The notes under the pieces are model-generated. The model ran no database searches and had not been told where the DNA came from. It saw only the letters and a program-made list of their open reading frames with translations. Positions 12,910 to 25,977 of a stretch of DNA of 64,000 nucleotides are shown here, one piece after another. A program made the translations under genes and the position numbers. Location of the stretch: positions 124,001 through 188,000 of the forward strand of contig NZ_AP023181.1 of assembly GCF_013426915.1 (NCBI RefSeq), read 5' to 3'. Source of the DNA: Paraburkholderia sp. PGU19. Its GTDB lineage: Bacteria; Pseudomonadota; Gammaproteobacteria; Burkholderiales; Burkholderiaceae. The number at the start of each line of letters is the position of its first letter. The stretch's first letter is position 1.

Positions 12910-14250
12910 CTAGCTCGCCCCGCGCCGCGCGAAGAAACGATTCTCCGGGCGCGGCAGGCCGAGATGGTCGCGCAGCGTCGTGCCTTCGTACGCGCGGCGG
13001 AAAATGCCGCGCCGTTGCAGTTCGGGCACGACTTTATCGGCGAAATCGTCGAGACCGCCGGGCAGATACGGGAACATCACGTTGAATCCATCCGAGCCGC
13101 GCTCGACTAGCCATTGCTCCATCTGGTCGGCGATGGTCGCGGGCGTACCGACCATTTCCAGCCCCGAGTAACCGCCGATCCGCTGCGCAAGCTGGCGGAT
13201 GGTCAACTGGTCCCGACGCGCCCAATCGACGACACGTTGCCGCGAACTCTTGCTGGCATTGCTCTCGGGAATCTCGGGGAGCAACGAATCCGGGTCGAGT
13301 TGCGACACGTCATGGCCGAGCGCGATCGACAGCGACGCGATACCGCTGTCGTAATGCACGAAGGTATCGAGCAACGCGCGCTTTTCGCGTGCTTCATCGG
13401 CGGTATCGCCGACCACCACAAAAGCGCCCGGCAGTATCTTCAGATGCTCCGGGTCGCGGCCGGCGCGCTCGACACGGCTTTTCACATCGGCGTAGAAGCG
13501 CTGGCCTTCGGCGAGCGAGGGCGGCGCGGTGAACACGGCGTCGGCCGTTTCGGCGGCGATCTGGCGTCCTGCTTCCGACGATCCCGCCTGCACGACGACG
13601 GGCCAGCCCTGGACCGGCCGCGCGATGTTCAGCGGCCCGCGCACCGACAGATGCTCGCCCTTGTGGCCGAGCATATGCATCCGCTCAGTGTCCACAAACA
13701 CGCCGCTTTCGACGTCGCGGACAAACGCGTCGTCGGCCCAGCTATCCCACAGGCCCGTGACGACGTCGTAAAACTCGCGCGCGCGGTGATAGCGCTCGCC
13801 ATGCTCGACATGGGCTTCGAGGCCGAAGTTCAGCGCCGCATCGGGATTGGATGTGGTCACGAGATTCCACCCGGCGCGGCCGCCGCTCAGATGATCGAGC
13901 GAAGCGAAGCGGCGCGCGACGTGGTACGGCTCGTCGAAAGTCGTCGACGAGGTGGCGATCAGCCCGATGCGCTCCGTCACCGACGACAGCGCGGCGAGCA
14001 GCGTCAACGGCTCGAACGATGTGACGGTGTGGCTGCGCCGAAGCGCGGCGGGCGGCATGTTGAGCACCGCGAGATGATCGGCCATGAAGAACGCGTCGAA
14101 GCACGCGCGTTCGAGCGTCTGCACGAAGCGCTTCAGATGCGCGATGTTGAAGTTTGCGTCGGGAAAAGCGCCGGGATAGCGCCACGCGCCCGTATGCAGG
14201 CTGACGGGACGCATGAAAGCGCCGAGATGCAACTGACGGGATCGGGTCAT
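12910..14250 (-). CDS. FMN-dependent LLM-class monooxygenase (NtaA/SnaA/DszA family)
   Basis: A 446-residue flavin-dependent monooxygenase of the bacterial luciferase-like superfamily, NtaA/SnaA/DszA branch. It starts LHLGAFMRPVSLHTGAWRYP and contains the family segments DHLSGGRAGWNLVTTSNPDAALNFG (split here across residues about 135-160) and VQAGSSEAGRQIAAETADAVF. Such enzymes use FMNH2 from a separate reductase to oxidise nitrilotriacetate, sulfonates, sulfones or similar compounds. The ATG at 14250 fits the conserved N-terminus; the frame stays open for another kilobase but only as antisense to the tauA-like gene. It is divergent from that transporter, which suggests a sulfur compound as substrate. 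Confidence 0.88.
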   Translation of the reverse strand: MTRSRQLHLGAFMRPVSLHTGAWRYPGAFPDANFNIAHLKRFVQTLERACFDAFFMADHLAVLNMPPAALRRSHTVTSFEPLTLLAALSSVTERIGLIATSSTTFDEPYHVARRFASLDHLSGGRAGWNLVTTSNPDAALNFGLEAHVEHGERYHRAREFYDVVTGLWDSWADDAFVRDVESGVFVDTERMHMLGHKGEHLSVRGPLNIARPVQGWPVVVQAGSSEAGRQIAAETADAVFTAPPSLAEGQRFYADVKSRVERAGRDPEHLKILPGAFVVVGDTADEAREKRALLDTFVHYDSGIASLSIALGHDVSQLDPDSLLPEIPESNASKSSRQRVVDWARRDQLTIRQLAQRIGGYSGLEMVGTPATIADQMEQWLVERGSDGFNVMFPYLPGGLDDFADKVVPELQRRGIFRRAYEGTTLRDHLGLPRPENRFFARRGAS

Positions 14251-14505
14251 GATGGAAGCCCTTGCCGAAAAGGTAAGCGGATTGCGACGCTTGCGCGAAA
14301 TACGATACGACAAGCGCGCAAATCCGGCTGGCCGACTGCACAAACCGGTCTTTGCAGCGATATCAGCGGCACTTGCTGTTTCCGCATGAAAAGCAAAGCT
14401 GCAACGGCGTGATTTGCTACGCACGAAACATTCGAACGACGGCGGCAAGAAGTGCCTATAGTCGGAAGCCTCATGCAGTTTCCATAACCAGCACGCAACC
14501 TTCCG

Positions 14506-15537
14506 ATGAACCACACTCTCTCCATCCTCGGCCGCGCGTTGCGCGCCGCCGCGTTCGTCGTGGCGTCGGCCGCGATTGTCTCGCCCGCCCACGCCGACAC
14601 CCGCGAAGTCGTGATCGGCTATCAGGACATGGTCGTGCCGTGGCGCTACGCGCAGGTCACGGGCGCCGTCGAAAAAGCCACCGGCTACAAGGTCACGTAC
14701 AGCAAGCTCGGCAGCGGCGCGGACGTGATCCGCGCGCTCGCGTCCGGCTCGATCCAGCTCGGCGAAGCGGGCTCCAGCCCGATCGCGGCGGGGCTGTCGC
14801 AAGGCGTGGACCTGTCGCTGTTCTGGATTCTCGACAACATCAACGACGCCGAAGCGCTCGTCGCGCGCGACGGCTCGGGCGTGACGAAGCTCACTGACCT
14901 GAAGGGCAAGACCATCGGCCTGCCGTTCGTGTCGACGTCGCACTTCCATGCGCTCGTCGCGTTGCAGCAGGCGGGCGTCGATCCGTCGACGGTTAAGATC
15001 CTCAACCTGCGTCCGCCCGAGGTCGCGGCTGCATGGCAGCGCGGCAACATCGACGCGACGTACATCTGGGACCCGGTGCTCGCGAAGGTCAAGCAGAACG
15101 GCAAGGTGCTGATCACGTCGGGTGAAGTCGCGAAGCAATCGGGCAAGGCGACGTTCGACGGCTTCGTCGCCGCGCGGCAGTTCGAGCGCGACAACGCCGC
15201 GTTCATGACGGGTCTTGTCAAGGTGCTCGCAGAAACGGATGCGCAGTATCGCGATCACAAGGCGGCGTGGACGCCCGCTTCGAAGGAAGTGCAGGCCGTC
15301 GCGCAAGAGTTGGGCGCAACGCCCGCCGACGTGCCCGCAAGCCTCGCGCTGTACGCGTTCCCGACGCCGGCGGAACAGGCGTCAGCGGCGTGGCTCGGCG
15401 GCGGCAAGCAGTCGGGCGCGGCGGCATCGCTGGCGGCGACGGCGGCGTTCCTGAAGACGCAGGGCACGATCCAGAACGTGCTGCCCGACTACTCGGGCGC
15501 CGTGAACCCACGCTTCGCGCAACAGGCAGCGCGATGA
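14506..15537 (+). CDS. tauA: Taurine/sulfonate ABC transporter substrate-binding protein
   Basis: A 343-residue periplasmic binding protein. The signal peptide covers residues 1-30 and ends SPAHA. The mature part follows the TauA pattern closely: [70 protein letters not shown]. TauA proteins deliver taurine or other aliphatic sulfonates to an inner-membrane ABC importer. The stop overlaps the ATPase start (ATGA). It is divergent from the LLM monooxygenase over 255 bp that must hold both promoters. No TauD dioxygenase is nearby, so the ligand may be a sulfonate other than taurine. Confidence 0.9.
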
Positions 15538-16313
15538 GCGCGCTGGAAATCCGCGGCGTCGGTGTGACCTATGACGGTGCGGACGCGCCCGCGCTCGCGG
15601 GCGTCGATCTGCGCATCGACAGCGGCGAATTCGTCGTTGCATTGGGCGCGTCGGGTTGCGGCAAAACCACGCTGCTCAATTGCATTGCGGGTTTCGTCGA
15701 TCCCACGGAAGGCGAGGTGCGCCTGAATGATGCGCCCATCGAAGGACCAGGCGCGGAGCGCGGCGTCGTATTTCAGAAGCATGCGCTGATGCCGTGGCTG
15801 AACGTGCTCGACAACGTCGCGCTCGGACTTCGCTTTCGCGGCGTCGCGCGCGACGAGCGGCACGAGATCGCGCGGCGCACGCTCGCGCTCGTCGGGCTGG
15901 AGCGGCATGCGAACGCGAAGGTGTACGCGCTGTCGGGCGGCATGCAGCAGCGCGTGGGCATCGCCCGCGCATTGGCGAGCGACCCGCAAGTGTTGTTGAT
16001 GGACGAGCCGATGGGCGCGCTCGATGCGCTCACGCGCGAAACGGTTCAGGAACTCGTGCTCGACGTGTGGTCGCGCACGCGCAAGACGGTTTTCTTCATC
16101 ACGCACAGCGTCGAAGAGGCATTGTTCCTCGCGACGCGTCTCGTGCTGATGACGCCTGGCCCGGGGCGCGTCGCGGAAGTGCATGAACTGCCGTTTGCGC
16201 GCGAATACCTGGCGTCACGCGATGCGCGCGCGGTGAAGTCGTCGGCGGCCTTTATCGCGTGGCGCGAGCGTTTGACGCGCCGCTTGCATGAGACGGTGCG
16301 GGAGGCCGCCTGA
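15534..16313 (+). CDS. tauB: Taurine/sulfonate ABC transporter ATP-binding protein
   Basis: A 259-residue ABC ATPase of the nitrate/sulfonate/taurine family. Walker A is GASGCGKTT (residues 38-46), the signature is [15 protein letters not shown], Walker B is [12 protein letters not shown], and the H-loop is [13 protein letters not shown]. It couples ATP hydrolysis to sulfonate import together with the flanking permease and binding protein. The start overlaps the tauA stop by four bases and the stop shares one base with the permease ATG, so the three genes are one tightly coupled operon. Confidence 0.93.
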
Positions 16314-17197
16314 TGAATTCGATCGATTCTTCGCGACACGGCCCAACGGGCCGCCTGCGAGCGGCGCAGCGCGGCGATCGCGACGCGACGCCTACACGTA
16401 AGCGCAAGACTAATCGCGGCATACCCGGCGAAGGCCCGACCGCCACGCTCAGCACGCTGTGCGTCGCGGCCTTGTTGCTGCTGTGGTGGGCCTCGTCGCA
16501 CTTCGGCTGGGTGCCGCCGCTGTTTCTGCCGTCGCCGGACGCCGTCTGGCGCGCATTCACCGATGCATGGAACGGCCGCATTCAGGGCGGGCTGCCGTTA
16601 TCGGAACACCTGATGTGGAGCGCGATCCGCGTGTTCGGCGCGTTTGGGCTCGCGTGCGTGACGGCCGTGCCGATCGGCGTGTTGATGGGCGTGAGCCGCG
16701 TCGCGCGCGGTCTGCTCGATCCGCCTATCGAGTTTTACCGGCCGCTGCCGCCGCTCGCGTATCTGCCGCTCGTGGTGATCTGGTTCGGCATCGATGAAAC
16801 GGCGAAGCTGATCGTCATCTGGCTCGCGTGCTTTGCGCCCATTGCGATGGCAGCGCGTGCGGGCGTGCGCAGCGCGACCGTCGAGCAGATCAACGCCGCG
16901 TGGTCGCTCGGCGCGAACTTCAGGCAGGTCGTGCTGCACGTCGTGTTGCCCGCTGCGTTGCCGGAGATTCTCACAGGGCTGCGCATTGCGATCGGCTTCG
17001 GCTGGACGACGCTCGTCGCTGCCGAGATGGTCGCGGCAACGGCGGGGTTGGGACAGATGGTGCTCAATGCGTCGAGCTTTCTGCGCACCGATGTCGTGGT
17101 GATGGGCATCGTGCTGATCGGCGCGATTGCGTGGCTGTTCGATCTGGGTATGCGCGCGCTGGAACGCAAGCTCGTGCCGTGGAAGGGCAAGCAGTAG
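16313..17197 (+). CDS. tauC: Taurine/sulfonate ABC transporter permease
   Basis: A 294-residue inner-membrane permease with about six helices. The BPD-type EAA loop is EQINAAWSLGANFRQVVLHVVLPAALPEILTGLRIAIG, read in pieces around residues 185-225. The family segments FYRPLPPLAYLPLVVIWFGI and LNASSFLRTDVV are present. The first 40 residues are polar and basic (a long cytoplasmic N-terminus), somewhat longer than usual. A later start is possible, but the ATG at 16313 overlaps the ATPase stop. It is the last gene of the operon and converges with the ureohydrolase gene 15 bp away. Confidence 0.9.
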   Translation: MNSIDSSRHGPTGRLRAAQRGDRDATPTRKRKTNRGIPGEGPTATLSTLCVAALLLLWWASSHFGWVPPLFLPSPDAVWRAFTDAWNGRIQGGLPLSEHLMWSAIRVFGAFGLACVTAVPIGVLMGVSRVARGLLDPPIEFYRPLPPLAYLPLVVIWFGIDETAKLIVIWLACFAPIAMAARAGVRSATVEQINAAWSLGANFRQVVLHVVLPAALPEILTGLRIAIGFGWTTLVAAEMVAATAGLGQMVLNASSFLRTDVVVMGIVLIGAIAWLFDLGMRALERKLVPWKGKQ

Positions 17198-17212: not shown

Positions 17213-18163
17213 TTACCGGTTTCCGTCGCTCACGCGCTTTGCGAGCAGGCACAGTATTTCGTACATCAGCGTCGCGGCGACGAGCGCGGTGTTGCCGCTC
17301 GGATCGTAAGGCGGCGAGACTTCGACCACGTCGCCGCCCACCCAGTTGAGCCCGTCGAGACCGCGCAGCAGCGCCTGCGTCTCGCGGGTCGTGAGGCCGC
17401 CCACTTCCGGCGTGCCCGTGCCCGGCGTGAAGACAGGGTCGAGCCCGTCGACATCGAGCGAAAGGTAAACGGGCGCATCGCCGACAATGCGCCGCGCTTC
17501 GGCTGCGACAGCGGCCGGCCCGAGCGCGTCGAACTCTTCGATGAACACGACGCGCATACCGTGATCGAGCGAATAGCGCCAGCCTTCGTCCGAATTCTGC
17601 GCACCGCGAATGCCGATCTGAATGGTTCGCTTCGGGTCGAGCAGACCGGCTTCGACCGCGCGGCGAAACGGCGCGCCATGCGTGAACTTCGAGCCTTTGA
17701 ACGTATCCCAGGTGTCCGTGTGCGCGTCGATATGCACCAGCGCGATCGGCTCGCGCGGCGCCAGCGCCTGGAAGATCGGGTAGGTGATCGAGTGATCGCC
17801 GCCCGCTGTCAGCGCGAGCTTGCCGGCGCGGAACACGGGTTCGAAGAAACGACGGATGTCCTCGTGCGCGCGTTCGAGATGATAGAGGTCGGTGAAGGGC
17901 ACGTCGCCGATATCGGCGACGCGGCAGGCGTCGAACGGATTGAAGCGCGTCACGTGATGGATGCCGCGCATCATCGTGGACATGTTGCGGATTTCGCGCG
18001 GACCGAAGCGCGCACCCGGGCGCGCCGTGACGCCGCCGTCGAAGGGTACACCCGCAAGGGCGATATCGAAGGTGCTCGGGTCTGTGCTGAACGGCACACG
18101 CATGAAAGTCGGGATGCCCGCGAAGCGCGGCTGCTGCATCTGGGTCAGATCGGTTCCCGTCAC
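17213..18163 (-). CDS. Ureohydrolase of the agmatinase/guanidino-acid hydrolase family
   Basis: A 316-residue manganese ureohydrolase. The binuclear metal motifs are GGDHS (residues 121-125, Asp123 and His124), DAHTD (146-150) and SLDVDGLDP (Asp237, Asp239). The family splits a guanidino group into urea and an amine; members act on agmatine, guanidinobutyrate, guanidinopropionate or guanidine. The start is taken as GTG at 18163 because AGGAG lies six bases upstream; a GTG at 18181 would contain that site. It is the last gene of an eight-gene operon with an amino-acid-type ABC transporter and a DUF1989 protein. That context favours an imported guanidino acid over agmatine from arginine decarboxylation. 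Confidence 0.9.
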   Translation of the reverse strand: MTGTDLTQMQQPRFAGIPTFMRVPFSTDPSTFDIALAGVPFDGGVTARPGARFGPREIRNMSTMMRGIHHVTRFNPFDACRVADIGDVPFTDLYHLERAHEDIRRFFEPVFRAGKLALTAGGDHSITYPIFQALAPREPIALVHIDAHTDTWDTFKGSKFTHGAPFRRAVEAGLLDPKRTIQIGIRGAQNSDEGWRYSLDHGMRVVFIEEFDALGPAAVAAEARRIVGDAPVYLSLDVDGLDPVFTPGTGTPEVGGLTTRETQALLRGLDGLNWVGGDVVEVSPPYDPSGNTALVAATLMYEILCLLAKRVSDGNR

Positions 18164-18206
18164 ATTGAACTCCTGTTTCACTTTCGTTCAGCGCCAACTG
18201 CACGCT

Positions 18207-18911
18207 TTAGAAGGTCGGTGGCGTATTGATCCACAGCACGCGGGTGATGCAATTGCCGGGATTACGGTAGCTGTGCGGCTCGGTGCTCGGAAAGTAGAAG
18301 GAATCGCCCGCCCGCAGCCGGTAGCATTCGCTGCCGAGCGTGAGTTCGAGTTCGCCTTCGAGCACGTAGCCCAGTTCTTCGCCCGCATGGCTGATCTGCT
18401 CGTCGCTGCGCGCGAGCGGTTCAAGTACATGAATATCGCCTTGCAGCAGTTGCCCGGGGCCTGCCACCACGAGCCGTTCCAGCATGATGGAGCCGCCTGC
18501 GCGGCCATGTCGACCTGTGGTTTGTTGCACGCCCGGAAAGCGCACGGAAGGACGTTCGCTGGCGCGCTGCACGGGCGTGACGTTCGCAACGGGACCGGAC
18601 ACCAATGCAGCGATGTTCGTGTCCAGCGCGAGCGCGATCCGGTGCAAGGTTGCAAGCGAGGGCGTCGCGTGGCCGCCCTCGACTTTCGACAACAGACTCT
18701 CCGAGCAGCCTGCCTGCTCCGCTAGCGCCTTCAGCGTGAGCTGCTGCACCATGCGTGCGTGCCGCAGCCGCGTGCCAAGACCTTCGGCTGCCGCGCCTTG
18801 TGCAGAATGAGTGGCGGCTGCGCGTGGCGTTTTCGCGGCGCGCCGCGGCGCGAGTGAGGACGGCCTGCGGGAAGCGCCATTGCTGGACGTGGGGGTTTTT
18901 CTGGTGGCCAC
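18207..18911 (-). CDS. XRE-family regulator with C-terminal cupin (PuuR-like)
   Basis: A 234-residue two-domain regulator. The N-terminal 45 residues are basic and low in complexity. An XRE HTH follows (LRHARMVQQLTLKALAEQAGCSESLLSKVEGG, residues about 49-80), then a cupin_2 ligand-sensing domain from about 150 to the end (SHAGEELGYVLEGELELTL, YFPSTEPHSYRNP). PuuR-type proteins repress polyamine or amino-acid catabolic operons and are released by the substrate. It lies inside the ureohydrolase operon between the DUF1989 and ureohydrolase genes, so it probably autoregulates the operon, perhaps through the palindrome at 24071-24087. Confidence 0.9.
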   Translation of the reverse strand: MATRKTPTSSNGASRRPSSLAPRRAAKTPRAAATHSAQGAAAEGLGTRLRHARMVQQLTLKALAEQAGCSESLLSKVEGGHATPSLATLHRIALALDTNIAALVSGPVANVTPVQRASERPSVRFPGVQQTTGRHGRAGGSIMLERLVVAGPGQLLQGDIHVLEPLARSDEQISHAGEELGYVLEGELELTLGSECYRLRAGDSFYFPSTEPHSYRNPGNCITRVLWINTPPTF

Positions 18912-18956
18912 CGTATGCGTTCTGTCGATCAGCGTAAAAAAACGGCGTGGCGAGTA

Positions 18957-19673
18957 TCAGGCGAGAACCGTGAACTCGACTTCGACCGGGTTGAGTGCGT
19001 TGATGGGAATGATATCCTGCGGACACGCCGACATCACGACGATGCAATCCATCGCGGCCTTGATGTCCACATGGTCGCCCGCTTTCGACACGGGAGGCAG
19101 CCAGTCGATCGTGTAATCCGGCTTGACGGGGATGTTCATCCACAGGTTGAACGGCTGCGGCACTTCCCGCGTGCGCAGGCCGATCGCCTTCAGCGCCAGC
19201 CGCAGATTGTCCGCGCAGTTGTCGTGATAGCTCTCCACTCCCAGATTCTTGTAGCGATACAGGTCGCAGGCCGCGATCAGCGTGTCGTGCACGCCCGGCG
19301 ATGTATCGGCGACCAGTTCGGCGATCGGACGGCGATGATTCGTCATGAGCGGGTCGCCCGGCTGCGGAATGATCTTGTCGATAAACGCGCGCGTGTGTTC
19401 GAACGAGAGGAATTCGTTCAGGTGCGTGGCATTGAAGATCCACGTATCGCAGACCTGGGTGCCGTGCGGGTTCGAGATACGGATGGTTTGCCCCGCCTTG
19501 ACACGCACGGCGCGGCCGCTGCGCGCGGGCACCGTATAGGTCTTACCGGGCTCGGGCGTGCCGTCGGCGGAAATCGGTTCGTGCAAGGTGGCGTTCTGGC
19601 CGAGTTCCGTGCCGTTGTCGTCACTCGGGTGGGCATGCGTGTGCGTATGCGTGTGGGTGGCGGTCGTGCTCAT
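18957..19673 (-). CDS. DUF1989 (urea carboxylase-associated) family protein
   Basis: A 238-residue DUF1989 protein. Family features are the core YTVPARSGRAVRVKAGQTIRI, the THLNEFLSFEHTRAF segment, and cysteines in VESYHDNCADNL and VVMSACPQDI. Family members sit beside urea carboxylase, and two of them (CgdA and CgdB) form a carboxyguanidine deiminase. Here only one copy occurs and no urea carboxylase is in view, so it may act on a different guanidino or carbamoyl intermediate. The first 15 residues contain a repeated His-Thr run (HTHTHTHAH), an unusual possible metal-binding tail. It sits 12 bp after the M20 hydrolase gene in the operon. Confidence 0.87.
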   Translation of the reverse strand: MSTTATHTHTHTHAHPSDDNGTELGQNATLHEPISADGTPEPGKTYTVPARSGRAVRVKAGQTIRISNPHGTQVCDTWIFNATHLNEFLSFEHTRAFIDKIIPQPGDPLMTNHRRPIAELVADTSPGVHDTLIAACDLYRYKNLGVESYHDNCADNLRLALKAIGLRTREVPQPFNLWMNIPVKPDYTIDWLPPVSKAGDHVDIKAAMDCIVVMSACPQDIIPINALNPVEVEFTVLA

Positions 19674-19685
19674 CTGGGTTCCTTG

Positions 19686-20951
19686 TCAGTCGTTGCAAAG
19701 CGTGGTGAGGGTGTGCGCGAGCGCGCGTGCGCCCAGCACGAGGTGTCGGGCTTCCGTGGCTTCAGCCGGGTTGTGGCTGATGCCGCCCCGGCTCGGCACG
19801 AACAGCATCGCCGTTGGGCAGTGCTGCGCGAGATACATCGCGTCGTGAAAGGCGCCCGACGTGAGGCGCAGCGCAGGCGCGTCGAGCGCGTGGCAGGCAG
19901 CGTCGAGCCGCGCGAGTACCGACGCGTCGAAACGCACTGGCGCGTGAGTGAAAAGCGGCGCGATGCGCGCGCCGTGGCGTCTGGCGCAAGCCGATACCTG
20001 CTCGTCGAACGCATCCAGCACGTGGGCGTCGGGGTGACGGAAATCGACGGAGAAGGTCACGTCGGATGGAATCGTGTTGATCGAATTCGGCGTTACGCTC
20101 CAGCGGCCGAACGTGATGCGCGTGTGCTCGCCGCCCAATGACGTGGCTATTTCTTCGAGCGAAGCGCGCAGCGCGACGGCGAGCGTCATCGCGTCGCGGC
20201 GCATCGGCATTGGCGTGGTGCCGGCGTGCGCAGCCACACCTTCGCAGTGAAATTCATACCAGCGCACGCCCTGAATGCCCGTGACGACGCCGAGCGGCAC
20301 GTCGGCACTCTCCAGTTGCGGACCTTGCTCGATATGCAACTCGACGAACGCATACGCAGGCGGCGCGTCGCCGCGTGACGGCAGGTCGGGTAAGGCGCGC
20401 CGATAGCTCTCCAGCGCGGCGCGCAATGTGACGCCGTCGGCGTCGGCGGCGTCCAGGTAGGCGGGCATGCGCGACGGCTCGACGAATGCGCTCGATCCCA
20501 TTGCGCCGGGCGCGAAGCGCGTGCCTTCTTCGTTGGTCCAGATCGCGACTTCGAGTGGCCGGCGCGTACGGATGCCCGCATCGTTGAGCGCGGCGATGCA
20601 TTCGAGCCCGGCGAGCAGGCCGTAGCAGCCGTCGAGCTTGCCGCCCGACGGTTGCGTGTCGATGTGGCTGCCCGTCATCACGGGCGACGCAGCGTCGATG
20701 CCGGGCCGGCGGATGAACAGGTTCGCGCATGCGTCGGTGGAGACGGTGCAGCCCAACGCGTGCGCACGTGCGACTAGATGACGGCGCGCGTCCAGATCCG
20801 TTGCGCCAAGGGCGGGGCGGTTCACGCCGCCATCGGACGGTGCCCCGAATGCCGCGAGTGCTTCGATCGATGCAAGCAGGCGTGTCTCGTCGACACTTTG
20901 CGCGGCACGCCGTGCAGCGTCATCGTGTGCAGGTTGACCGGCCCTCATCAT
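19686..20951 (-). CDS. M20-family Zn-dependent amidohydrolase (hydantoinase/carbamoylase type)
   Basis: A 421-residue M20 enzyme of the N-carbamoyl-L-amino-acid hydrolase and allantoate amidohydrolase branch. Metal ligands are visible in TGSHIDTQPSGGKLDG (His96, Asp107), TNEEGTRF (Glu141/142), VELHIEQGP and SGAFHDAMYLA. Such enzymes remove a carbamoyl group from an N-carbamoyl or ureido acid, releasing ammonia and carbon dioxide. Its start (MM at 20951 or 20948) overlaps the ABC ATPase stop. Occurrence with a ureohydrolase and DUF1989 protein suggests that the operon dismantles a compound with guanidino or ureido groups. Confidence 0.88.
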   Translation of the reverse strand: MMRAGQPAHDDAARRAAQSVDETRLLASIEALAAFGAPSDGGVNRPALGATDLDARRHLVARAHALGCTVSTDACANLFIRRPGIDAASPVMTGSHIDTQPSGGKLDGCYGLLAGLECIAALNDAGIRTRRPLEVAIWTNEEGTRFAPGAMGSSAFVEPSRMPAYLDAADADGVTLRAALESYRRALPDLPSRGDAPPAYAFVELHIEQGPQLESADVPLGVVTGIQGVRWYEFHCEGVAAHAGTTPMPMRRDAMTLAVALRASLEEIATSLGGEHTRITFGRWSVTPNSINTIPSDVTFSVDFRHPDAHVLDAFDEQVSACARRHGARIAPLFTHAPVRFDASVLARLDAACHALDAPALRLTSGAFHDAMYLAQHCPTAMLFVPSRGGISHNPAEATEARHLVLGARALAHTLTTLCND

Positions 20952-21790
20952 GACGACGCTCCCGATGTTTGCACCACGCTGTCAGCCCTTCCTGCCGATG
21001 CGCTAAAGCTCAGGCTGCGATCGAACCACGGCTTGAGAAACTGCTGAAGACGCGGCGTGCGCGAGTTGCCGAAGAGCTGTACAGGCGGCCCCGACTCGAC
21101 GATCTGACCGGCTTCCATGAACATGACCTTGTCGGAAATCTTCGCGGCGAAACTCATTTCGTGTGTGACCATGACCATCGTCATGCCGTCCTGTGCGAGT
21201 GAACGGATCACGTTCAGCACTTCTTCGACGAGTTCGGGATCGAGCGCCGAAGTCGGTTCGTCGAGCAACATCACTTCCGGCTCGATGGCAAGCGCACGCG
21301 CGATGCCGACGCGCTGCTGTTGTCCGCCGCTCAACCGCGCGGGATAGACGTCCGCCTTGTGCTGCAGGCCGACGCGAGCGAGCGCCGCTTGCGCCTTGGC
21401 GCGCGCGTCCGCGCGGCGCATCTTTTTGGACAGCACGAGCGGCGCGGCGACGTTGTCGAGTACGCTCATGTGCGGCCACAGATTGAACTGCTGAAACACC
21501 ATCGACACCGGGCGCCGCACCTCCGCGACGCTCGCCTCGCTGTCGCGATCGCGCGGCGTGCGGCCAGCGGAGCGATAGCCGAGCAGTTGCCCTTTGATCC
21601 AGACTTCGCCTTCGTCGTAGGGTTCGAGGAAGTTCATGCAGCGCAGCGCCGTCGTCTTGCCCGAGCCGGACGGCCCGATCAGCGTGACGATCTCGCCGCG
21701 CATCACGTCGAGGTCGATGCCCTTGAGCACGCGGGTTGCGCCGTACGACTTGCCGACGGCGCGCAGCTTGAGTATGGGTTGAGCGCTCAT
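20948..21790 (-). CDS. Polar amino-acid ABC transporter ATP-binding protein
   Basis: A 280-residue ABC ATPase of the GlnQ/HisP group. Walker A is GPSGSGKTT near residue 40, the Q-loop VFQQFNLWPHMSV, the signature [15 protein letters not shown], Walker [17 protein letters not shown], and the switch histidine MVTHEMSFA. The C-terminus is about 30 residues longer than usual. It powers import of the ligand bound by the product at 23161-24018. Start and stop both overlap neighbouring genes by four bases. Confidence 0.93.
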   Translation of the reverse strand: MSAQPILKLRAVGKSYGATRVLKGIDLDVMRGEIVTLIGPSGSGKTTALRCMNFLEPYDEGEVWIKGQLLGYRSAGRTPRDRDSEASVAEVRRPVSMVFQQFNLWPHMSVLDNVAAPLVLSKKMRRADARAKAQAALARVGLQHKADVYPARLSGGQQQRVGIARALAIEPEVMLLDEPTSALDPELVEEVLNVIRSLAQDGMTMVMVTHEMSFAAKISDKVMFMEAGQIVESGPPVQLFGNSRTPRLQQFLKPWFDRSLSFSASAGRADSVVQTSGASS

Positions 21791-22464
21791 GTGGCTTTAT
21801 GTGTGGCTTGATTTGCGGCGTTGCGCAGAAAAGAGTTCATCGCCGTCGCGCGCTGCGCGAGCAGCGACACGGCCTGCGTGAGCAGCCAGTAGCTCACGAT
21901 CAACAGCGCATACGGACCGATGTACGTGTAAGTGGAGGCGACGATGTCGCTGGCCGTCATCGTCAGTTCGGGCACCGTGATGATGGATGCCACGGCGCTC
22001 TCCTTGATCACGAGAATGATCTGGTTCGCGAGCAGCGGCACCGCGAACTCGAGCGCCTGCGGCAGTTCGATCGCGCGGAACGCGGCCCAGCGGTTCACGC
22101 CGAACGCCTGCGCGGCCTCGATCTGACCACGCGGCACGCTGGCCCATGCAGCGCGAAAAATCTCCGCGAAATACGCGCTCGCATAGATCGCGAGCGACAC
22201 GACCGTTGCTTGCACGGCCGTCATCGTGATACCGAAAACGGGCAGCCCGAAGTAGACGATCATCAGTTGCGACAGATACGGCATGCCGCGAATCAGCCAG
22301 ACGAACAGGCCGTAGGGCGCGGCAAGCACGCGGACGTAACGCAGGCGCAACGCGTTGAGCGTGAAACCGCCGGCCATGCCGAGCATAGCCGCGATCAGGC
22401 TGACTTCGAGCGTGACGAGCATCGCGTCGGCGAAGCGTGGAACGAGAGCGAGCAGGTTATCCAT
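21787..22464 (-). CDS. Polar amino-acid ABC transporter permease (first of two)
   Basis: A 225-residue permease of the HisM/GlnP family with about five helices. The EAA loop is GQIEAAQAFGVNRWAAFRAIELPQAL near residues 130-155, and the N-terminal segment LIRGMPYLSQLMIVYFGLP is typical. It forms a heterodimer with the permease at 22480-23142 and is driven by the ATPase whose gene it overlaps. Confidence 0.92.
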   Translation of the reverse strand: MDNLLALVPRFADAMLVTLEVSLIAAMLGMAGGFTLNALRLRYVRVLAAPYGLFVWLIRGMPYLSQLMIVYFGLPVFGITMTAVQATVVSLAIYASAYFAEIFRAAWASVPRGQIEAAQAFGVNRWAAFRAIELPQALEFAVPLLANQIILVIKESAVASIITVPELTMTASDIVASTYTYIGPYALLIVSYWLLTQAVSLLAQRATAMNSFLRNAANQATHKAT

Positions 22465-22479
22465 GCGAGTGATCCCCGG

Positions 22480-23142
22480 TCATGCGCGCGACGCCGCGCG
22501 GCGCTCGTAGCAATGCGCGGCGAAGGACAGCAGCGTGGTGATGGCCAGATAGAAGAGCGCGGCGCACGTGTACACCTCCAGCGGCCGGTACGTCGATGAC
22601 GACAGTTGCTGGCCGACGCGCATCAGGTCCGTGACGGATATCACCGACACCACCGCCGACGCCTTGACGATATCGATCATCTCCGACACGAGCGCAGGCA
22701 GTGTCACCCGCACCACCTGCGGCACTTCGATGTGCCACAGCACCTGACGGCGCGTCAGATTGAACGTGACGGCCGCTTCGATCTGCCCGCGTGCGATCGA
22801 GCGAAAGCCCGCGCCGAGAATCTGCGACTGATACGCGGCCGTGTTCATCGACAGCCCGATGGCCGCCGCGACGATGCCGGGCACCGCGAGCCCGAGCGCC
22901 GACGGCAGGTAATACATCACGAGCAGTTGCGCGAGCACGGGCGTGCCGCGAAACACGCTGACATAGACCCGCGCGGCGCCCGCGAGCAGCCGGCTCTCGC
23001 TTGCCGACATCGTGTAGATGAAGATGCCGGCAAAGAAGCCGCAGAACACGGCAGCCGCCGACAGCCACAGCGTCGTCAATGCGCCGTCCAGCAGTTGCGG
23101 CAGATAGCCGGCGCAGCGTGCGAGCAGATCGGGAGCGTTCAT
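22480..23142 (-). CDS. Polar amino-acid ABC transporter permease (second of two)
   Basis: A 220-residue permease of the HisQ/HisM family. The family segments are SVFRGTPVLAQLLVMYYLP and the EAA loop GQIEAAVTFNLTRRQVLWHIEVPQ. It is 15 bp upstream of the first permease and 18 bp downstream of the binding-protein gene. A longer minus-strand frame over the same DNA (22457-23218) is a shadow. Confidence 0.92.
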   Translation of the reverse strand: MNAPDLLARCAGYLPQLLDGALTTLWLSAAAVFCGFFAGIFIYTMSASESRLLAGAARVYVSVFRGTPVLAQLLVMYYLPSALGLAVPGIVAAAIGLSMNTAAYQSQILGAGFRSIARGQIEAAVTFNLTRRQVLWHIEVPQVVRVTLPALVSEMIDIVKASAVVSVISVTDLMRVGQQLSSSTYRPLEVYTCAALFYLAITTLLSFAAHCYERRAASRA

Positions 23143-23160
23143 CTATCGGATCGCGGCAAG

Positions 23161-24018
23161 TCAGATGGAGGGCGCGGGGACGGCGTCGACGGGGACGTCC
23201 ATCGTCGAGCCGAACCACTTCTCCTGCAGCTTCTTCATCGTGCCGTCGCGGTTCGCACGTGCGATGCCGTCGCTAAAGAGCTTGACGAGCGCAGCGCTGT
23301 CGCTGTCCTTGCGCGCGACCCACGCGAAGTAGCTCTTCGGCCCGATCGTCTGCGGCAGCAGCGTGAACACACCGGGACGCGATTTCATCAACGGCCCCAG
23401 GTTTGCGACCGATTGCGCGACGGCATCGAGCCGTCCCACGGCGAGATCGGCATAGGCTTCGTCGAACGCAACGTACTGCTTGATCTGCTTGATGCCGGGG
23501 CCGCCAGCGTCTTTCAGTTTCTTGTCGAGCGCCTGCAATGCCTGTAGCTGCGCCGAGCCCGTCTGCGAGCCGACGATCTTGCCGTTCAGGTCGTCGGGAG
23601 ACTTGATGCTCGTGTCGCCGTTGCGCAGCAGCACGCCCGTCGTCGCGTCGGCGATGGGCAGGGTGAACGCGAAGTGGCTGACGCGGTCCTTGTTGACGGT
23701 AACGGCCGTGACGACGATATCGAAGCGCTTGGCGTCGAGTCCCGGCAGCAGTCCCTGAAACGGCAGGTCGAGTTGCTTGACCTTCACATCGGGTATCGAC
23801 TTCAGCACGTAGGCCATCAGATCCGCGTCATAACCGACGATCTTGCCGTTATCGACGTACTCGAAGGGCGCGTAACGGGCCTCCGTCGCGATGGTGATTT
23901 CCTTGTTCGTCTTGATGCGCGTCAGTAGATCGTCGGACTGCGACCAGCCCGGCGTGGCGGTGACGAGTGCGAGCGCACCGAGCAGCGAGAAGACCAGACT
24001 GCGAAGAGGCTTGTTCAT
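23161..24018 (-). CDS. Periplasmic amino-acid-type substrate-binding protein
   Basis: A 285-residue SBP_bac_3 protein. The signal peptide covers about residues 1-26 (ends TPGWSQS). The fold begins with ITIATEARYAPFEYVDNGKIVGYDADLM, and the hinge region LNGKIVGSQTGSAQLQAL is typical. It binds a small cationic or zwitterionic ligand for import. It is the first gene of the eight-gene operon, and the sensor palindrome at 24071-24087 lies about 55-70 bp before its start. The catabolic genes downstream suggest a guanidino or ureido acid as ligand. Confidence 0.92.
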   Translation of the reverse strand: MNKPLRSLVFSLLGALALVTATPGWSQSDDLLTRIKTNKEITIATEARYAPFEYVDNGKIVGYDADLMAYVLKSIPDVKVKQLDLPFQGLLPGLDAKRFDIVVTAVTVNKDRVSHFAFTLPIADATTGVLLRNGDTSIKSPDDLNGKIVGSQTGSAQLQALQALDKKLKDAGGPGIKQIKQYVAFDEAYADLAVGRLDAVAQSVANLGPLMKSRPGVFTLLPQTIGPKSYFAWVARKDSDSAALVKLFSDGIARANRDGTMKKLQEKWFGSTMDVPVDAVPAPSI

Positions 24019-24070: not shown

Positions 24071-24087
24071 ATTCAAGTTACTTGAAT
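24071..24087. promoter_or_regulatory. Palindromic operator candidate upstream of the ureohydrolase operon
   Basis: ATTCAAGT and ACTTGAAT flank one central T, a perfect 8+1+8 palindrome. It sits 53-69 bp upstream of the first gene of the minus-strand operon, where a promoter is expected. The operon encodes an XRE-cupin regulator of the kind that binds such short symmetric sites, so this is the best operator candidate. Binding is inferred. Confidence 0.55.
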
Positions 24088-24408
24088 GAGGTTCAATAAG
24101 CATGAGGCGTGCCATGCGAGACGGCCTTGTCGCGCAGGGAAGCCGGCGCGCGAGATGCACCGGCGCGGGGAGTTTTTGGCGCCGCCGAGGTCGCGCGCGG
24201 CGCACGATGCACCGCGCTGGGGATGCCGTGCCACGCGCCGATGTCGCAATTCGTCACATCGATGTCGCGCTGGCATCACAGAAGCCATGCGGCGCCGCCG
24301 TTAGTCCTGTAGACGGCCTGCGATCGCATGGCCAGTTCCGATTCCGTTCTGACTACTGGAGAAACGCTGCGCGCGCCGCACTTTCGGCGCGCACGCTGCT
24401 TTGCGCTC
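24088..24408. other. Intergenic stretch between the ureohydrolase operon and the chemoreceptor
   Basis: About 320 bp with no supported gene. The palindrome and the probable minus-strand promoter lie at its left edge. The remainder is GC-rich and offers only shadow frames. An upstream in-frame ATG for the chemoreceptor lies at 24328. I see no RNA gene or repeat here. Confidence 0.5.
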
Positions 24409-25977
24409 ATGTTCAGAAACACCACGATTCGCGGCGGGCTCGCCGCCACCATCTCGGGTTGCACGCTGCTGTTGATGCTGGTCATCGCGGCGGCTGTGTT
24501 TGCGCTCTTCAAGAGCAACGCCGCGCTCGATGCGATGTATCGGGACGACACGGCTTCCGTCGTGCATCTGAAGACCAGCTCCGAGCGGTTGCTGGTGTTC
24601 CGCACGGGGCTCGCCGACGTCGAGCAACTGATCAGTGCGGGCAAGCCGGCTGCCGCCGAGATCAAACAGCTGCATGTGCTGCTCGCCGAGAGCAACCGCG
24701 AGCTCGATGCGTACCGTGCGCTGCACGCGCCCGAGGAGCAGGAAACGACGCTGCTCTCTGCGATGACGGACAAACGCGACCGTCTGTTGACGCAGGCCTT
24801 TTCGAAGGCCCTCAAGCAGCTCGACGAAGAAAATCTGGTCGACTTCCTGAGCACACAGCGCGAGATGCCCGTCGCGCTGTTCGACGAATACCAGAAGGCG
24901 CTCATCGCGCTGGAGGATTTTCAGGTGCAGCGCCAGCGTATGCGCTTCGATCACGCGAACGAGCGCTTTCAGATGACACTCTGGGGTTTCGGCGCGGCTG
25001 GATTGAGCGCGCTGATCGTCGGCATGCTCGCGCATCGGGGGCTGACGCGGGCGATCGTCACGCCCGTCAACGCCGCCGTCGAATACTTCGCGAGGATCGC
25101 AGCAGGCGACCTCACGGCTGTCGTCAAAACGGAGCGCCGCAATGAAATGGGTTATCTGCTCGACGCGCTGAACGACATGCAGCAAGGTCTCGTCGCCGTC
25201 GTGCGCAAGGTCAGGGCGGGGACGGACGCGATCATGCACGATGCGCGAGCAATTGCCAGCGGCAACCGCGATCTGTCGATGCGCGCCGGCGATCAGGCCG
25301 CCTCGCTCCAGCAGGCGGCCGCAAGCATGGAACAACTGACGGCCACGGTGCGGCAGAACGCCGACAATGCGCACGACGCGAGCGCGCTCGCCACCCGTGC
25401 ATCCGACATTGCGACACGCGGCGGCGAAGTGGTGCGTCAGGTCGTCGATACGATGGATGCGATTTCGGATAGCTCGGCGCGCATTGTCGGCATTGTCGGC
25501 GTGATCGAGAGCATTGCGTTCCAGACCAATATTCTTGCGCTGAACGCAGCCGTCGAAGCGGCGCGAGCGGGAGATCAGGGGCGCGGCTTCGCGGTGGTGG
25601 CCAGCGAGGTGCGGCATCTGGCGCAGCGCAGCGCGACCGCTGCAAAGGAAATCAAGGAACTGATCGGCAATTCGACGCTGAGCGTGCGTGCGGGAAGCGA
25701 ACTGGTCTTGCGCGCGGGCTCGACGATGGACGACATCCTCAAGGCCGTGCAGAGCGTGAACGCGATCATGGCGGATATCAGTCTTGCGTCGCGCGAGCAG
25801 ACGGCGGGTATCGAACTGGTCAACGCGACCGTCGTGCAGATGGAAGCGATGACGCAGAGCAACGCAACGCTGGTCGAGTCGGCGTCGACCACGGCGGCTT
25901 CGCTGGAAGCGCAAAGCGAGCATCTGCACGGCGCCGTGGCGATATTCCGTGTGAGCGGGGACGAGCGGCCCGGGTGA
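24409..25977 (+). CDS. Methyl-accepting chemotaxis protein
   Basis: A 522-residue chemoreceptor. Helix TM1 is [26 protein letters not shown] (near residues 9-33), followed by a helical periplasmic domain of about 160 residues and TM2 ([17 protein letters not shown]). A HAMP domain ([18 protein letters not shown]) and the cytoplasmic signalling domain follow; its conserved tip is [22 protein letters not shown]. It controls CheA activity in response to a periplasmic ligand. The MFRNTTIRG start matches the family; an upstream in-frame ATG at 24328 would add 27 unlikely residues. No C-terminal CheR-binding pentapeptide is visible. Its neighbour suggests, but does not prove, that it senses the substrate of the adjacent transporter. 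Confidence 0.92.

What the first reader, a model, noticed from the sequence alone, without database searches (positions are those of the whole stretch)
18163..24018. Eight-gene operon coupling an amino-acid ABC importer to a ureohydrolase, a DUF1989 protein and an M20 carbamoylase
Seen directly: all eight genes lie on one strand with gaps of at most about 45 bp and several four-base overlaps, with an XRE-cupin regulator inside. Known: ureohydrolases release urea from guanidino compounds, M20 carbamoylases remove carbamoyl groups, and DUF1989 pairs form carboxyguanidine deiminase. Inferred: the operon imports and dismantles a guanidino or ureido acid by a route I cannot match to any described pathway, as it has a single DUF1989 gene and no urea carboxylase.
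Basis: partly seen in the sequence, partly recalled or inferred. Interest (0 to 1): 0.7.

Follow-up and report, generated by a model that had tools for sequence, protein, structure and literature searches.

The report
Operon for importing and degrading guanidino-acids
This soil bacterium carries an uncharacterised gene set that probably takes up a small guanidine-bearing acid and strips off its nitrogen by two alternative routes, one of them through a protein family whose role here is still unknown; it looks like a new combination of known kinds of enzyme.

Summary
The eight-gene operon is real: importer (4 genes), M20 carbamoylase, DUF1989, XRE-cupin regulator, ureohydrolase; the last ends at 17213, outside the stated interval. 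Of 80 loci found through DUF1989, 35 lack the ureohydrolase, 33 have all eight genes, and 2 have importer+DUF1989+ureohydrolase without M20. Anchored instead on the binding protein (22 copies in 299 genomes), three close relatives sit beside orthologues of 3-guanidinopropionase (GpuA) with no M20 or DUF1989 of this type. So one importer is served by a ureohydrolase, by DUF1989+M20, or by both. Best model: a short guanidino acid, most likely 3-guanidinopropionate, is cut directly to urea plus amino acid, or deiminated by DUF1989 to a ureido acid that M20 decarbamoylates. The binding protein has serine at the usual alpha-amino aspartate (75 of 75). A sigma-54-like box lies 27 bp from a 17-bp palindrome found at one place in the 11.2 Mb genome. 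DUF1989's reaction, the order of steps and the substrate are inferred, not shown. New variant of a known kind.

The parts
23161..24018 (-). Family-3 solute-binding protein of the ABC importer (285 aa)
   Evidence: Pfam SBP_bac_3 104.6 bits; R112 and S203 invariant in 75 of 75 aligned
22480..23142 (-). Importer permease 1 (220 aa)
   Evidence: Pfam BPD_transp_1; NCBIfam TIGR01726 over its cut-off
21787..22464 (-). Importer permease 2 (225 aa), overlaps the next gene by 4 bp
   Evidence: Pfam BPD_transp_1; TIGR01726 over its cut-off
20948..21790 (-). Importer ATPase (280 aa), overlaps the next gene by 4 bp
   Evidence: Pfam ABC_tran 118.8 bits
19686..20951 (-). M20 hydantoinase/carbamoylase-family hydrolase (421 aa)
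   Evidence: NCBIfam TIGR01879 359.3 bits against cut-off 204; H96, D107, E141, E142, H206, H393 and H242, N292, R305 invariant in 76 of 76 (roles recalled)
18957..19673 (-). Single DUF1989 protein (238 aa), proposed guanidino-acid deiminase
   Evidence: Pfam DUF1989 183.3 bits; C136, H150, C153, C217, D220 invariant in 79 of 79
18207..18911 (-). XRE-cupin regulator (234 aa)
   Evidence: Pfam HTH_31, HTH_3 and Cupin_2; cupin part matches PuuR below its cut-off
17213..18181 (-). Ureohydrolase (322 aa), GTG start; optional member of the operon
   Evidence: Pfam Arginase 308.9 bits; best solved relative GpuA 3nip, 366.9 bits; metal-ligand positions invariant in 40 of 40
24100..24114 (-). Sigma-54-like promoter box TGGCAC-N5-ATGC
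   Evidence: at most 1 mismatch in 68 of 75 upstream regions; shuffled mean 3.55, largest 10
24071..24087 (.). 17-bp palindrome ATTCAAGTnACTTGAAT, proposed operator of the XRE-cupin regulator
   Evidence: at most 2 mismatches in 62 of 75, shuffled 0 in 20 sets; 27 bp from the promoter box in 55 of 61 with both; sole match in the window at up to 3 mismatches, 0.08 expected; one place in the genome at up to 2 mismatches, the reversed control also one

Best explanation
The operon scavenges nitrogen (and probably carbon) from a short guanidino acid without an alpha-amino group, most likely 3-guanidinopropionate. The family-3 ABC importer takes it up. Inside, two alternative routes lead to the same amino acid. 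Direct: the ureohydrolase gives the amino acid (beta-alanine for this substrate) plus urea, which urease splits. Two-step: DUF1989 hydrolyses the guanidino group to a ureido group plus ammonia, and the M20 enzyme removes the carbamoyl group (for this substrate: N-carbamoyl-beta-alanine to beta-alanine, CO2 and NH3), with no free urea. The XRE-cupin protein represses at a palindrome that would lie over the transcription start of a sigma-54 promoter. Shown here: gene set, conservation, interchangeability of the enzymes beside one importer, residue patterns, promoter-like box and palindrome. Inferred: the substrate, the DUF1989 reaction, the order of steps, the regulator-operator contact.
For: One importer, exchangeable enzymes: of 80 loci, 35 are importer+M20+DUF1989+XRE, 33 all eight genes, 4 the same without XRE, 2 importer+DUF1989+ureohydrolase. 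Anchored on the binding protein instead, 22 copies at 70% or more in 299 genomes: 18 in genomes with the full set; 3 beside a GpuA orthologue with no M20 or DUF1989 of our type within the 20 kb read; these nest in the Burkholderiaceae operon clade (99% SH-aLRT). GpuA orthologues: 576, 558 and 440 bits to 3nip, against 367 for the window's enzyme. L102 has importer+DUF1989 with a ureohydrolase of the GpuA-like group. M20 and DUF1989 go together in 19 of 19 genomes, and 3 loci keep the pair without importer. S203 replaces the usual Asp in 75 of 75; Asp in 18 of 29 other family-3 binding proteins of the genome, out of 50 others found. DUF1989 keeps a full Cys3 site alone. Eleven of 35 ureohydrolase-less genomes have no match to the window's ureohydrolase at E 1e-40. 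Urease in 22 of 25 genomes with, 15 of 24 without the operon ureohydrolase (Fisher 0.051 two-sided).
Against: No activity of this DUF1989 subfamily was tested. Its best NCBIfam match is TMAO demethylase (107.9 bits, far below the cut-off 1100), and at two positions it resembles that enzyme (His150, Asp220) rather than the catalytic-looking subunit of the genome's CgdAB-type pair, which has Met and Leu there, so the deiminase analogy is not exact. Two loci (L102, L107) keep DUF1989+ureohydrolase without M20, where a ureido product would need a carbamoylase from elsewhere (not looked for genome-wide). The fourth non-operon binding-protein copy (L279) sits beside a distant DUF1989 and an amidase, not GpuA, though that genome has a GpuA-like enzyme on another contig. 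Asp is not universal in the control set (7 Gly, 2 Leu, 1 Glu, 1 Ser of 29). The window's ureohydrolase lies outside the GpuA-like group, so it may prefer another chain length. Sister M20+XRE modules pair with an amidase and a Liv-type importer, which the model does not explain. The urease difference is weak and not corrected for descent.
Confidence: 0.5

Rival explanations
1. Sequential rather than parallel: DUF1989 acts first on the imported compound by another chemistry (for example C-N cleavage like TMAO demethylase) and its product goes to M20 or to the ureohydrolase.
For: DUF1989 is the constant partner in the 74 importer loci of 80, and two of them have DUF1989+ureohydrolase without M20; His150 and Asp220 are as in TMAO demethylase.
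Against: DUF1989 is constant partly because the search was anchored on it; three importers with 70-79% identical binding proteins lie beside GpuA with no DUF1989 of this type, so the ureohydrolase needs no DUF1989 product there.
Confidence: 0.2
2. Substrate range rather than redundancy: the importer takes several related compounds; the ureohydrolase handles a guanidino acid, while DUF1989+M20 handle a different ureido, amide or N-substituted acid.
For: The window's ureohydrolase forms its own clade; sister M20+XRE modules go with an amidase and a Liv-type importer; M20 matches no substrate-specific NCBIfam model over its cut-off.
Against: 35 of 68 importer+M20+DUF1989+XRE loci dispense with the ureohydrolase while importer residues stay fixed (R112, S203 in 75 of 75), and GpuA-linked importers nest inside the same clade.
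Confidence: 0.2
3. Same two-route logic but the substrate is another guanidino acid (guanidinoacetate, 4-guanidinobutyrate, taurocyamine).
For: The loop after DAHTDTW differs from GpuA (FKGSKFTHG against YFGDNPYTHG), and a human member of this superfamily prefers some guanidino acids over others (PMC9772407, passages).
Against: The importer's ureohydrolase partners outside the operon are GpuA orthologues in three of the four copies, and L102 uses an enzyme of the GpuA-like group in the operon's slot.
Confidence: 0.3

Closest known systems
3-guanidinopropionase GpuA (PDB 3nip, Pseudomonas aeruginosa)
   Same: Closest solved relative of the window's ureohydrolase (366.9 bits); orthologues lie beside importers with 70-79% identical binding proteins.
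   Different: The window's enzyme is in a separate clade (99% SH-aLRT; 3nip itself was not in that tree, its close relatives were) with a different active-site loop; the P. aeruginosa locus uses a different transporter and a LysR regulator (recalled), with no DUF1989 or M20.
Carboxyguanidine deiminase CgdAB
   Same: DUF1989 family; proposed hydrolytic loss of ammonia from a guanidino nitrogen.
   Different: One gene instead of a pair, no guanidine carboxylase or allophanate hydrolase in the operon, below both UAAP cut-offs, and outside the branch of the genome's own pair (long branches there).
Agmatine deiminase + N-carbamoylputrescine amidohydrolase beside agmatinase (recalled)
   Same: Two alternative ways from a guanidino compound to the amine: direct urea release, or deiminase plus carbamoylase.
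   Different: Other protein families (DUF1989 and M20 in place of the AguA and AguB families) and an acid, not an amine, as predicted substrate.
M20 hydantoinase/carbamoylase family (N-carbamoyl-L-amino acid hydrolase, beta-ureidopropionase)
   Same: TIGR01879 over its cut-off; catalytic, metal and carboxylate-site residues kept (roles recalled).
   Different: SGAFHD in 76 of 76 where the four solved relatives aligned read SGAGHD; no substrate-specific model reached.

Membership tests
Carboxyguanidine deiminase (CgdAB) | Two adjacent DUF1989 genes | tested here: not met
   One DUF1989 in the operon; the genome's only adjacent pair among its four is at C2:1879349 and 1880107
Carboxyguanidine deiminase (CgdAB) | NCBIfam UAAP1/UAAP2 scores over the cut-offs | tested here: not met
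   UAAP2 106.5 against 284.7, UAAP1 73 against 205.95 bits
Carboxyguanidine deiminase (CgdAB) | Hydrolysis of the guanidino-derived substrate with ammonia release | not testable with these tools
   needs an assay
TMAO demethylase | DUF1989 domain fused to a GcvT-like domain | tested here: not met
   238 aa with only PF09347
3-Guanidinopropionase (GpuA) | Arginase-family metal ligands | tested here: met
   GGDHS, DAHTD and DVDGLDP positions invariant in 40 of 40
3-Guanidinopropionase (GpuA) | Groups with GpuA orthologues | tested here: not met
   Separate clade of 14 of the 15 operon rows, 99% SH-aLRT; only L102 falls among the GpuA-like rows
M20 hydantoinase/carbamoylase amidase | TIGR01879 over its cut-off | tested here: met
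   359.3 against 204 bits
M20 hydantoinase/carbamoylase amidase | Cleavage of an N-carbamoyl group | not testable with these tools
   needs an assay
Agmatinase | TIGR01230 over its cut-off | tested here: met
   197.3 against 174.3 bits; but a GpuA orthologue also passes (187.5), so this does not show agmatine as substrate
Amino-acid importer, alpha-amino-acid type | Asp at the alpha-ammonium site of the binding protein (role recalled from GlnBP/LAO) | tested here: not met
   Ser in 75 of 75 operon binding proteins; Asp in 18 of 29 others of the genome
Sigma-54 promoter | TGGCAC-N5-[AT]TGC upstream of the operon | tested here: met
   68 of 75 at up to one mismatch, shuffled mean 3.55; absent in the five Halomonadaceae loci

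The most novel reading that the evidence does not exclude
A single DUF1989 protein, acting without a partner subunit, is a guanidino-acid deiminase, an activity not assigned to this family in anything I found, and with a dedicated M20 carbamoylase it forms a urea-free catabolic pathway for 3-guanidinopropionate that is spread over many Pseudomonadota and also sits on plasmids, some conjugative.
Probability: 0.4. Interest if true: 0.65.

Novelty: new variant of a known kind. Interest (0 to 1): 0.5.

Why it matters
If true, it gives a reaction to a widespread branch of DUF1989, whose members are named 'urea carboxylase-associated' in many records (this one query finds 3,307 proteins at E 0.001; only part of them would share the function), and a substrate to a family of importers annotated as 'amino acid' importers. 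It would show that guanidino acids are scavenged by two interchangeable chemistries, and the loci with either route or both are a natural experiment.

Tried and rejected
Guanidine pathway: rejected for this operon, since it has one DUF1989, no carboxylase, and the genome appears to carry that pathway at C2:1872000-1889000 (the carboxylase and hydrolase there were named by eye from ORF size and start, not by a family search). Guanidine riboswitch: no Rfam match in 10000-32000. NtrC site: at most 2 mismatches in 21 of 75 against a shuffled mean of 1.95, but sites differ in place and sequence, so not claimed. Trp158 as a signature of the ureohydrolase: rejected, since other ureohydrolases, GpuA-like ones among them, have it too. 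Conserved extra partner gene: no cluster of other ORFs occurred in more than 19 of 80 loci, and that largest one has mixed strands and places and was not identified; six cluster representatives tested were LysR, SBP_bac_1, Sugar-bind, Amidase, Porin_4 and MCP genes. Order-level and phylum-level scans gave few further hits (3 of 300; 10 of 398; own genome included). Literature: ten searches of an open-licence library, read as listings, none listing a paper on this gene set; passages seen of six papers. The primary CgdAB paper is not held, so CgdAB facts come from passages of PMC12186494, PMC11410670 and PMC11271267.
Full report
OBSERVATION. The window lies at G000:C3:124001-188000 of an 11.2 Mb genome; its DUF1989 protein is 97% identical to one of Paraburkholderia hospita. 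Eight ORFs on the minus strand run from 24018 to 17213: binding protein, two permeases, ATPase, M20, DUF1989, XRE-cupin, ureohydrolase. Families were confirmed with Pfam and NCBIfam. The finding's interval stops at 18163 and so omits almost all of the ureohydrolase (17213-18181). Two junctions overlap by four bases; the largest gap is 45 bp.

CONSERVATION. A scan of named genomes with the DUF1989 protein kept 80 of 201 relatives, the best ones. Gene content around them: 35 importer+M20+DUF1989+XRE without ureohydrolase (mainly Pseudomonas, Stutzerimonas, Yersinia, Enterobacteriaceae and relatives, Acinetobacter; one Paraburkholderia MAG); 33 with all eight genes (Burkholderiaceae, Variovorax, Bordetella, Achromobacter); 4 with importer, M20, DUF1989 and ureohydrolase but no XRE (Halomonadaceae); 3 with M20+DUF1989 only; 2 with importer+DUF1989+ureohydrolase and no M20 (L102, L107); 3 with DUF1989 alone, two of them near a contig end. 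A tblastn check found all four importer genes, M20 and XRE in each of the 35 and the 33. This sample is conditional on DUF1989. Anchored searches over the same 299 family genomes avoid that: DUF1989 at 83% or more in 19, M20 at 64% or more in the same 19, ureohydrolase at 77% or more in 18 of those 19, binding-protein relatives at 70% or more in 21 genomes with 22 copies.

THE INFORMATIVE EXCEPTIONS. Of the 22 binding-protein copies, 18 are in genomes holding the full set. The other four: in G273, G075 and G265 (second copy) the importer lies beside a ureohydrolase that is a GpuA orthologue (3nip: 576, 558 and 440 bits), with no M20 or DUF1989 of our type in the 20 kb read. A LysR gene next to it is confirmed in G075; the other two have LysR-like ORFs by eye. 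In G037 the importer lies beside a distant DUF1989 (29%), an amidase and a short ureohydrolase ORF; that genome has a GpuA-like enzyme on another contig. In a tree of binding proteins these four fall inside the Burkholderiaceae operon clade (99% SH-aLRT), apart from the Pseudomonas and Yersinia operon copies. In a ureohydrolase tree 14 of 15 operon rows form a clade (99%), while the ureohydrolase of L102 lies with the one of G265 (99%) in the wider GpuA-like group (90%); 3nip itself was not in the tree. So the same importer has been paired with two groups of ureohydrolase, with DUF1989+M20, or with both, which is what one expects if all act on one guanidino acid.

DISPENSABILITY OF THE UREOHYDROLASE. 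In 35 genomes without it (32 of the 35 loci above and the 3 with only M20+DUF1989) the best match elsewhere is 57% identical, and 11 of 35 have no match at E 1e-40; the motifs of the 30 retrieved loci are those of other ureohydrolases. Urease alpha was found in 22 of 25 genomes with the operon ureohydrolase and 15 of 24 without, a weak difference (Fisher two-sided 0.051) not corrected for descent.

RESIDUES. Binding protein: Arg112, at the position that binds the ligand carboxylate in this family (recalled), is invariant, and position 203, usually the Asp that binds the alpha-ammonium group (recalled), is Ser in 75 of 75. In 29 other family-3 binding proteins of the same genome (of 50 others found) it is Asp in 18, Gly in 7, Leu in 2, Glu in 1, Ser in 1. 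The three GpuA-linked copies have Ser as well; L279 has Ala. DUF1989: Cys136, Cys153, Cys217, His150 and Asp220 are invariant in 79 of 79; by alignment with TMAO demethylase the Cys positions match the zinc ligands reported for it (PMC12560246, passages). In the genome's own DUF1989 pair, one subunit keeps the three Cys but has Met and Leu at 150 and 220, the other lacks the ligands in my alignment. M20: metal, catalytic and carboxylate-site positions (roles recalled) invariant in 76 of 76; SGAFHD in 76 of 76. Ureohydrolase: metal positions invariant in 40 of 40.

REGULATION. Upstream of the binding-protein gene a sigma-54-like box is present with at most one mismatch in 68 of 75 regions (shuffled mean 3.55, largest 10) and the palindrome ATTCAAGTnACTTGAAT with at most two in 62 of 75 (none in 20 shuffled sets); in 55 of 61 regions with both the palindrome begins 27 bp after the box begins. 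With the usual distance from a sigma-54 promoter to the start (recalled), the palindrome would begin at about +1. The six loci with importer but no XRE gene (L102, L107, L109-L112; five of them Halomonadaceae, so hardly independent) all lack the palindrome; of 69 with XRE (window included), 62 have it and the other 7 show variants or half-sites at the same place. It occurs at one place in the genome at up to two mismatches, there with none; the reversed, non-complemented control also found one place. This makes it the likely operator of the XRE-cupin protein. Sigma-54 promoters often serve nitrogen control (recalled), but an NtrC site is not consistently found.

MECHANISM. I commit to the two-route model with about 0.5 for the model as worded and less for the exact substrate. 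The analogy is agmatine (agmatinase against agmatine deiminase plus N-carbamoylputrescine amidohydrolase; recalled). Weak points: nothing tests the DUF1989 reaction; two loci lack M20; sister M20 enzymes (56-60% identical, 13 of the 32 genomes) stand, in the eight regions read, with an XRE gene in seven (46-56%) and, where tested, an amidase of the AtzE kind and a Liv-type binding protein, so the M20/XRE module has been used for at least one other setting.

PRIOR WORK. Ten literature searches listed no description of this gene set. PMC9772407 (passages) reports that human AGMAT hydrolyses guanidino acids such as guanidinobutyrate and taurocyamine rather than agmatine, a reminder that 'agmatinase' labels mislead. 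PMC11271267 (passages) names CgdAB as a case of an enzyme with an inactive cognate. PMC11410670 (passages) treats CgdA and CgdB as two clades within PF09347. PMC8319176 (passage) only lists a DUF1989 gene in a table.

SPREAD. Forty-nine plasmid records hold a relative of the DUF1989 protein at E 1e-40, 19 of them Klebsiella. The one Klebsiella region read carries the seven-gene form without ureohydrolase, with insertion-sequence genes on both sides, on a plasmid typed conjugative.

Noticed in passing
L172, L173, L174, L176, L177: A different cluster: family-3 binding protein, two DUF1989 genes, two permeases, ATPase and a third DUF1989 gene in one run; in the three loci checked (L172, L174, L177) one of the three DUF1989 proteins lacks several metal-site residues.
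   Followed up: partly
L149 (G000:C3:2005000-2021000): The window's genome has another DUF1989 gene near a family-3 binding protein and an ORF that matches the importer ATPase.
   Followed up: partly
L311-L318: Sister loci in other genera: M20 (SGAFHDA in the six read), XRE-cupin in seven of eight, an amidase (tested in L313, L314) and a Liv-type importer (binding protein tested in L313).
   Followed up: partly
L162: A distant genome of the phylum has importer genes, two ureohydrolase-family ORFs (31% and 36%) and DUF1989 together, with no M20 match.
   Followed up: partly
window 24328-25977: An ORF that looks like a chemotaxis receptor by eye diverges from the operon; in L034 a divergent ORF was confirmed as MCP with a TarH domain. 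Possibly chemotaxis linked to the binding protein.
   Followed up: no
window 12910-17197: By eye from translations: a flavin monooxygenase-like frame and a nitrate/sulfonate-type ABC importer set next to the operon's end; in L043 a luciferase-like monooxygenase gene precedes M20+DUF1989.
   Followed up: no
L319 (CP052387.1 104272-122931): The seven-gene form lies between insertion-sequence genes on a conjugative Klebsiella pneumoniae plasmid, near lac genes.
   Followed up: partly
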